From Paludibacteraceae bacterium (lineage in GTDB: Bacteria > Bacteroidota > Bacteroidia > Bacteroidales > Paludibacteraceae): 64,000 bases of DNA. Shown in pieces: positions 12,582 through 28,027 of the stretch. The notes below the pieces were generated by a model that did not search any database, was not told where the DNA came from, and was given only the letters and a program-made list of their open reading frames with translations. Location: the NCBI GenBank assembly GCA_016283095.1, contig JAEEMG010000082.1:1-64000 (forward strand), in the 5' to 3' direction. The position numbers and the translations under genes were made by a program. The first letter of the stretch is position 1, and each line of letters opens with the position of its first letter.

Positions 12582-12938
12582 ATGGATAACGAAAACAACG
12601 ATAAAGAACAGCGTCGTGGTTTCCCTGTTGAAATCACAGAAGATATAGCAGAGGGTGTATATGCCAATTTTGCCCTTGTAGGACACTCTCAGACAGAATT
12701 CCTTTTGGACTTTGCCAAGACTATACCTGGACAGCAGAAGGCTAAAATAAAGAGCCGTGTGATAATGTCTCCGATTCAGGCTAAACGTCTTCTTCGTGCT
12801 TTGCAGGACAACATCGCAAAATATGAGCAGGATTTTGGCGAAATCAATATCCAACCTATAGCTCCTCGTGGAAATGGCAATGACAATGGTTCTATTCCTC
12901 CTTCATTTATGGGCTTCAACGGTACTGGAGAGGCATAG
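12582..12938 (+). CDS. DUF3467 family protein
   Basis: ADNNNAxx...GVYANFALVGHSQTEFLLDFAKTIPGQQKAKIKSRVIMSPIQAKRLLRALQDNIAKYE; conserved position after rpoC. Confidence 0.85.
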   Translation: MDNENNDKEQRRGFPVEITEDIAEGVYANFALVGHSQTEFLLDFAKTIPGQQKAKIKSRVIMSPIQAKRLLRALQDNIAKYEQDFGEINIQPIAPRGNGNDNGSIPPSFMGFNGTGEA

Positions 12939-12973
12939 TGGAAATGCAAAATTTGTAATGCGAAATTCAACAT

Positions 12974-13002
12974 AAAAAGACGAGATTTATTCTCGTCTTT
13001 TT
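12974..13002. terminator. Symmetrical hairpin terminator AAAAAGACGAGA/TCTCGTCTTTTT
   Basis: 12-bp stem with U-tract. Confidence 0.85.
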
Positions 13003-13114
13003 ATGTTTATATCAAATTGTACGCATGTACATAATAGAAAGACATAATGTACATCTGTATTTAGACATATAGATATGGATGTTTGTGGATTTAGTGGATT
13101 TATTATGTCTTGAA

Positions 13115-25547: not shown

Positions 25548-25592
25548 GTAGAGACGCACGGACGTGCGTCTCTTCTCGGACGTACGTCTGAC
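25548..25592. repeat. REP-like palindrome GTAGAGACGCACGGACGTGCGTCTC + half copy
   Basis: Direct reading. Confidence 0.85.
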
Positions 25593-25776
25593 AATGCATC
25601 ATCAAACAAATCATCATGTGTCTCCAATTTTTTCGAACACTAAAATAAAAAAATCATAATTCAAGATATTTTCAGATGAAGATAAATGCTTGATAAATAT
25701 TTATGTGCATGCTGTTTGGTACATTTGACACGGATGGAGACGAATGTCATTGGGCAGGATTGCATGCATGTTTTGC

Positions 25777-25862
25777 AAATATTAATCAGAATCTTTATTC
25801 CATGAACCAAAACATGTAGAGACGCACGGACGTGCTTGTAACCATCTGGACGTGCGTGTAAC
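25777..25862. repeat. Left flanking repeat of RAYT gene, including REP-like palindrome pair
   Basis: AAATATTAATCAGAATCTTTATTCCATGAACC..GTAGAGACGCACGGACGTGCTTGTAACCATCTGGACGTGCGTGTAAC; matches 26569-26650. Confidence 0.88.
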
Positions 25863-25995
25863 ATAGACATTCATTTTTTGTGTGAACATTGCCAACCCAT
25901 TATCTGTCCAATCTAAATCAATTTAATATTTGCATCATATTTTGTGAATTTCGGGAAAGGTTTATAATTTTGTTCAAAAATTAGTAACAGGAAAA

Positions 25996-26577
25996 ATGGA
26001 AGATTTATTCAAAAACAAATATCGTATTTCTTCAAATAGAATGCGAAAATGGGATTATGCAGGCAATGGCCATTATTTCATTACATCAGTGACGGCATCC
26101 CGACAAGAATTATTCGGAGAAATCGTAAACAACAGAATGGTATTGAATGATTTTGGCAAGATTGTTTACAATGAATTTTTCAAATCTTTTGAAATCCGAA
26201 AAGAATTGTATTTGGGTGAATTTATCCTTATGCCCAACCATTGGCATGCAATAATCATATTGGATAAATCAATATGCACCGATTTATATCAGAAAATTCA
26301 TTCATCTCAAAAACAGAATGAATATTTCCCATTAATAAGGAAACCAAAATCAATATCTACATTTGTGAGCGGATTCAAATCTTCTGCAATCACTCAAATT
26401 GACAATTTCATTGACAAAAATAACTTGGCAATACCAAAATTCAATAAGTTGAATCCATTGTGGCAGCCAAATTATTACGACCATATAATTCGTGACAGTG
26501 ACGAATACAATAAAATTGCCGATTATATTATTAACAATCCACAAAACTGGGAGAATGACATGTTTTCCAAACATTAA
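25996..26577 (+). mobile_element. REP-associated tyrosine transposase (RAYT/Y1_Tnp, HUH type)
   Basis: YFITSVTASRQELFGEI...GEFILMPNHWHAIIILD (HWH motif), YNKIADYIINNPQNWENDMF C-terminus. Confidence 0.9.
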
Positions 26578-26650
26578 TCAGAATCGTTATCCCATGAACC
26601 CAAAACCCGTAGAGACGCACGGACGTGCGTGTCGCCATCTGGACATGTGA
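26569..26650. repeat. Right flanking repeat of RAYT gene, including REP-like palindrome
   Basis: AAACATTAATCAGAATCGTTATCCCATGAACCC..GTAGAGACGCACGGACGTGCGTGTCGCCATCTGGACATGTG. Confidence 0.88.
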
Positions 26651-26737: not shown

Positions 26738-26763
26738 GTTACACGCACGGACGTGCGTGTAAC
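26738..26763. repeat. REP-like perfect palindrome GTTACACGCACGGACGTGCGTGTAAC
   Basis: 12-bp stem with 2-nt centre, nested in outer ACGATTGT/ACAATCGT inverted repeat. Confidence 0.85.
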
Positions 26764-27948: not shown

Positions 27949-28027
27949 GTAGAGACGCACGGTCGTGCGTCTAATCGATCCCCGTGATGCCGTGCGTCTC
28001 ATGAAGTGATGCCGTACGTCTCATGAA
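27949..28027. repeat. REP-like palindrome followed by 2 x 22-bp tandem repeat
   Basis: GTAGAGACGCACGGTCGTGCGTCTA, then GTGATGCCGTGCGTCTCATGAA / GTGATGCCGTACGTCTCATGAA. Confidence 0.85.

What the first reader, a model, noticed from the sequence alone, without database searches (positions are those of the whole stretch)
25777..26650. RAYT transposase flanked by ~80-nt direct repeats that carry its REP-like palindromes
The HUH/Y1 transposase gene (HWH motif at MPNHWH) sits between two direct repeats. Both begin AAA(T/C)ATTAATCAGAATC(T/G)TTAT(T/C)CCATGAACC and end in the palindrome GTAGAGACGCACGGACGTGC..., followed by CCATCTGGAC(G/A)TG(C/T)G. The right repeat starts inside the last codons of the transposase. 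This is the layout of a self-contained RAYT/REP mobilisation unit. Single-stranded REP processing by RAYTs is established for enterobacterial TnpA-REP; this Bacteroidetes unit and its repeat are inferred to work analogously.
Basis: partly seen in the sequence, partly recalled or inferred. Interest (0 to 1): 0.7.

Follow-up and report, generated by a model that had tools for sequence, protein, structure and literature searches.

The report
Domesticated RAYT transposase between deletable repeats
A gut-bacterium gene for a 'domesticated' single-strand-DNA transposase sits between two copies of a short repeat that ends in its own palindrome; related species suggest that the gene stays in one place and is lost precisely between the repeats rather than jumping, so it is a well-preserved example of a known system.

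Summary
A 193-aa RAYT (TnpA-REP; window 25996-26577) lies between two 88%-identical direct repeats (25767-25855 and 26559-26648). Each carries the last RAYT codons, TAATCAGAATC, 22-23 nt and the REP GTAGAGACGCACGGACGTGC. The RAYT/REP assignment holds: the REP has 87 strand hits in the 3.7-Mb genome, the genome's two other RAYTs carry different palindromes, and 53-58%-identical RAYTs in other genera carry this palindrome inside the gene.

'Self-contained mobilisation unit' is not supported. In nine genomes of the genus the extended repeat occurs only at this locus. The RAYT occupies the same interval in three species and diverges like its neighbours. G008 (98% identical in dnaE) and G001 have exactly one repeat and no RAYT. 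The G008 copy switches from left-repeat to right-repeat diagnostic bases at one point, as a crossover between the window's repeats would produce. REPs remain abundant in four species without this RAYT.

Best reading: a vertically inherited REPtron close to TnpA-REP subclass 2.4, whose direct repeats, probably a duplicated RAYT 3' end, act as a deletion trap. New details are the direct rather than inverted flanks and a locus-restricted repeat overlapping the stop codon. Cleavage and REP mobilisation are untested.

The parts
25767..25855 (+). Left direct repeat (L): copy of the RAYT 3'-end codons/hairpin, TAATCAGAATC, 22-nt spacer, GTAG-REP (imperfect right arm), CCATCTGGAC
25816..25840 (+). REP in the left repeat (GTAG foot, degenerate right arm)
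25996..26577 (+). RAYT / TnpA-REP gene, 193 aa, HUH (H82-W-H84), WQ at 156-157, Y177 in YIINNP
26559..26648 (+). Right direct repeat (R): begins in the last codons of the RAYT, ends after its 3' REP
26609..26633 (+). REP in the right repeat
25548..25573 (+). Further REP of the same family upstream; perfect 10-bp stem; also in G001 and G002, not in G007 or G008
26738..26763 (.). Symmetric GTTACACGCACG/CGTGCGTGTAAC palindrome, same core without the GTAG foot
27949..27973 (+). REP of the same family just after the ORF352 stop codon; a REP is at the same place in G003 and G007

Best explanation
A resident REPtron. A domesticated Y1/HUH single-strand endonuclease (RAYT, TnpA-REP, closest to subclass 2.4) is encoded next to copies of its own GTAG-tagged REP. 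By analogy with E. coli TnpA-REP (inferred, not shown here) it recognises the GTAG foot of single-stranded REP hairpins, cleaves and rejoins them, and so spreads or reshuffles REPs. The gene is inherited vertically at one locus. The two flanking repeats are direct copies of the RAYT's own 3' end plus its 3' REP. They probably arose by partial or tandem duplication of the gene (G006 carries a tandem RAYT pair) and now act as an 88-bp substrate for homologous deletion, which removes the RAYT cleanly and leaves one repeat, while the dispersed REPs persist.
For: RAYT identity: Pfam Y1_Tnp just above its cut-off; NCBIfam REP_Tyr_transpos 2.3e-18 but below its cut-off; the best fold match in the PDB is TnpA-REP bound to a REP hairpin, 4er8; W, Q and R of the GTAG-reading segment are conserved. 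Cognate REP: 87 strand hits; the other two RAYTs of the genome carry other palindromes; RAYTs 53% and 58% identical in other genera (G040, G012), and one in G049, carry the same palindrome within the ORF. Residence: the same GH43-ORF352-dnaE interval in G000 and G006, with G004 fitting; RAYT DNA 83-84% identical against 78-85% for the neighbours. Deletion: one-repeat sites in G001 and G008; G008 switches from L-type to R-type bases; the extended repeat is found only at this locus in nine genomes.
Against: Nuclease activity and REP movement were not tested. A one-repeat site is also what a pre-insertion site would look like, so direction rests on parsimony. Sequence upstream of the left repeat shows no significant RAYT homology beyond the last codons, so its origin from a former RAYT copy is only inferred. 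REP numbers do not fall in species lacking the RAYT.
Confidence: 0.72

Rival explanations
1. The RAYT plus one repeat moves as a circle or single-strand intermediate and re-integrates at a resident repeat (the one-repeat sites are pre-insertion sites), so the layout is a genuine mobile unit with a preferred attachment site.
For: One-crossover relationship between the G008 site and the window's L and R fits integration as well as excision; the left half of R and the right half of L both adjoin the gene; some relatives keep the repeat without the gene.
Against: No extended repeat and no close RAYT copy elsewhere in any genome of the genus; RAYT divergence matches vertical descent at this locus; the literature describes RAYTs as single-copy and vertically inherited (PMC8049555) and REPtrons as not appearing to transpose as a unit (PMC6006769).
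Confidence: 0.15
2. The RAYT is an ordinary IS200/IS605-type insertion sequence and the repeats are its ends or a target duplication.
For: Y1 fold and small dyads near both ends.
Against: Single copy at one locus; NF047646 and TnpA-REP are the closest matches; IS200/IS605 elements make no large target duplications and lack terminal inverted repeats (stated in PMC2817692).
Confidence: 0.03
3. The palindromes are maintained for another reason (transcription termination, mRNA stability) and their link with this RAYT is only historical.
For: REPs persist in G001, G002, G003 and G007 without this RAYT; some lie at gene ends, for example 27949 right after a stop codon.
Against: The same REP family sits in or beside this RAYT clade across genera; RAYT loss is recent on the tree, so persistence is expected (compare PMC3686654).
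Confidence: 0.1

Closest known systems
TnpA-REP / RAYT subclass 2.4 (PMC6006769), REPtron
   Same: WQ and YIxNNP motifs, GTAG-tagged long REPs, Bacteroidetes host, palindrome inside the RAYT ORF in relatives G012, G040 and G049
   Different: HUH reads NHWH rather than NH[IFV]H; the window's gene has no internal REP; its flanking REPs are direct, not inverted
Escherichia coli-type TnpA-REP (structure 4er8) and its REPtron
   Same: Fold, HUH plus one Tyr, WQ...(E/D)H..R segment that reads GTAG, single chromosomal gene, loss by deletion reported for E. coli strains (PMC3733652)
   Different: About 18% identity in the structural match; different REP; E. coli REPtron has inverted REP pairs (PMC6006769)
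TIRtron / TIRYT (PMC3733652)
   Same: Longer-than-REP terminal repeats, some overlapping the 3' end of the gene ('3'ov'); G004 has them inverted
   Different: Here the terminal repeat contains a standard GTAG REP, and in the window it is direct

Membership tests
RAYT / TnpA-REP | Y1 transposase fold with HUH and one catalytic Tyr | tested here: met
   HWH at 82-84, Y177; AlphaFold model (pLDDT 81) best matches 4er8, then ISDra2 and IS608 TnpA
RAYT / TnpA-REP | Trusted score for NCBIfam NF047646 | tested here: not met
   66.5 bits against a cut-off of 80, E = 2.3e-18: a divergent member of the broader group, not the named equivalog. This is a database threshold, not a biological criterion
RAYT / TnpA-REP | Gene flanked by GTAG-tagged palindromes dispersed in the genome | tested here: met
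RAYT / TnpA-REP | Flanking REPs in inverted orientation (Nunvar 2010, PMC2817692; later papers report variable arrangement) | tested here: not met
   Direct in the window; inverted in G004 and at the second G006 copy
RAYT / TnpA-REP | Single-copy, vertically inherited | tested here: met
   the G006 tandem pair is the exception
RAYT / TnpA-REP | Binds and cleaves single-stranded REP | not testable with these tools
   needs a nuclease assay
TnpA-REP subclass 2.4 | NH[IFV]H, WQ and YIxNNP motifs | tested here: inconclusive
   WQ and YIINNP met; NHWH differs at one site
TnpA-REP subclass 2.4 | REP inserted in the gene between HUH and Tyr (predominant in the subclass, not universal) | tested here: inconclusive
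   Absent in the window's gene; present in relatives G012, G040 and G049
Autonomous IS200/IS605 element | Copies at more than one locus, moving as a unit | tested here: not met
   One close copy in the genome; extended repeat at one locus in the genus

The most novel reading that the evidence does not exclude
The locus-restricted extended repeat is an attachment site: the RAYT excises and re-enters through it as a single-repeat circle, so this REPtron can cycle between occupied and empty states under its own enzyme, unlike the usual view that REPtrons do not move as units.
Probability: 0.1. Interest if true: 0.65.

Novelty: new member of a known kind. Interest (0 to 1): 0.3.

Why it matters
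It gives a clean comparative series at one locus: intact RAYT in G000 and G004, frameshifted tandem RAYT in G006, one-repeat sites without RAYT in G001 and G008, replacement in G003 and G007, with REP populations still present. That is a natural setting for testing how fast REPs decay once their transposase is gone. It also suggests how a domesticated transposase can be lost repeatedly and precisely through a repeat made from its own 3' end.

Tried and rejected
A first pattern for the extended repeat used too long a spacer and found nothing; the corrected one found the copies. Tested whether sequence upstream of the left repeat is a decayed RAYT beyond the last codons: no significant similarity (z = 1.0). 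Tested whether the upstream part of the window's 5' spacer (25856-25925) keeps a remnant of the inverted unit seen in G004: not significant (z = 0.5). Considered a target-site duplication: rejected as the main reading because the repeat contains RAYT coding sequence and the one-repeat sites hold that coding tail as well. Considered assembly collapse at the direct repeats for the empty sites: unlikely, because G008 and G001 carry private substitutions within the repeat, but not excluded for G002, whose contig ends in the REP.

Full report
OBSERVATION. The sequence is as described. A 193-codon ORF at 25996-26577 encodes MPNHWH and YIINNP. It is bounded by direct repeats at 25767-25855 and 26559-26648, 88% identical (E = 1.5e-24). 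The right copy begins in the last codons (MFSKH-stop). The left palindrome is imperfect. The palindrome core is found 13 times in the window against 0.02 expected, and 87 times counting both strands in the genome, with 0 for the reversed control (near-perfect palindromes can be counted on both strands, so the number of elements is somewhat lower).

PROTEIN. Pfam Y1_Tnp just passes its cut-off (23.2 against 23). NCBIfam REP-associated tyrosine transposase gives E = 2.3e-18 but 66.5 bits against a cut-off of 80. A model built on 12 sequences (pLDDT 81) matches TnpA-REP with its REP hairpin (4er8) first, then ISDra2 and IS608 TnpA. The WQ...DH..R segment corresponds to the residues that read GTAG in E. 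coli. The nearest published class is subclass 2.4 of PMC6006769 (WQ, YIxNNP, Bacteroidetes, long GTAG REPs, REPs inserted inside the gene). The HUH here is NHWH, not the published NH[IFV]H.

COGNATE REP. The genome has two other RAYTs, on C9 and C39 (36% and 30% identical to this one in the alignment). They carry other palindromes (GGGCAGGTTTGAAACCTGCCC; GGACGCATGCGATG...). RAYTs 58% and 53% identical in other genera (G012, G040), and one in G049, contain this REP (GTAGAGACGCACGG or GTTGAGACGCACGG) inside the reading frame, translated as VETHGRAS or VETHARAS. This ties the palindrome to this RAYT clade.

LOCUS HISTORY. Named relatives of the RAYT are in Candidatus Scybalocola fimicaballi and a Paludibacteraceae horse-faeces MAG, so the genus is a gut Bacteroidales. 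The interval between a GH43-type gene and ORF352-dnaE was compared across the genus. G000 has the RAYT with a direct repeat on each side. G004 has an intact RAYT with an inverted 5' unit and a 3' unit; its contig ends upstream of the RAYT, so only the downstream side of the synteny is seen. G006 has two RAYT copies, identical over 670 nt and 1159 bp apart, both with the same 8-nt deletion and frameshift after codon 17. G001 has no RAYT and exactly one repeat. G002 appears the same, but its contig ends in the REP. G008 has no RAYT at the site and one repeat. G003 and G007 have a 974-aa ORF with a J-domain-like C-terminus instead. RAYT DNA differs between G000 and G004/G006 by 16-17%, within the range of its neighbours (15-22%), as expected for descent at this place.

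THE EXTENDED REPEAT. A pattern for TCAGAWTC-N14-34-GTAGAGACGC finds 10 sites in nine genomes, all at this locus; none of the other dispersed REPs inspected in G000 has it. It is therefore specific to the RAYT locus and not part of the dispersed REP. Its left edge ATGTTTTCAAAACATTAA is both a small dyad and the end of the RAYT gene.

DIRECTION OF CHANGE. At sites where the window's left and right repeats differ, the single G008 repeat is left-type on its left side and right-type on its right side, with one switch (one later site reads left-type after the sequences diverge). The G001 repeat is mostly right-type with the left locus flank. This is the product expected of one crossover between L and R, or equally the site before insertion. 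Because the gene is at the same place in more distant species, and because the one-repeat sites carry RAYT coding tail, deletion is more likely than gain. That step is an inference.

REPS. REP hits (both strands): G000 87, G001 107, G002 71, G003 73, G007 54, G006 48, G008 37 (64% complete), G004 32 (77% complete), G005 0. G005 also has no RAYT match. REPs therefore outlast the RAYT. Alignments with G003 and G007 show some REPs conserved in place (L025, L028) and others variable: the L008 pair is absent from both; L013 is in G007 but not G003; L015 is in G003 but not G007. REPs turn over, but whether RAYT causes it was not tested.

KNOWN WORK. Single-copy vertical inheritance of RAYTs is stated in PMC8049555; inverted flanking REPs in PMC2817692; RAYT loss with remaining REPs in PMC3686654; deletion of REPtrons and RAYTs with longer terminal repeats in PMC3733652. 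What differs here is the direct orientation and the locus-restricted repeat that overlaps the stop codon. This is a new member of a known kind.

Noticed in passing
L071 (G006:C6:45400-49700): Two tandem RAYT copies identical over 670 nt, both with the same 8-nt deletion and frameshift, the first with a direct and the second with an inverted 5' repeat.
   Followed up: partly
L068:1459-4383 (G007) and the same place in G003 (L069): A 974-aa ORF with a J-domain-like C-terminus replaces the RAYT segment.
   Followed up: no
L103:1330-1842 and L104:1281-1904 (other contigs of the window's genome): Two further RAYTs, each with its own different palindrome beside or inside the gene.
   Followed up: partly
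L077, L076, L084 (other genera): RAYT ORFs with the same REP inside the frame; in L077 and L084 next to 15-nt in-frame tandem repeats.
   Followed up: partly
L008 (G000 C9 near 12897-13020): An inverted REP pair present in the window's genome; in G003 and G007 only a half-REP stub (CGTCTCTACGAGA) is at the site.
   Followed up: partly
L072:1478-2662 (G004): A 394-aa ATPase-like gene lies between the RAYT and ORF352 in G004 and not in G000 or G006.
   Followed up: no
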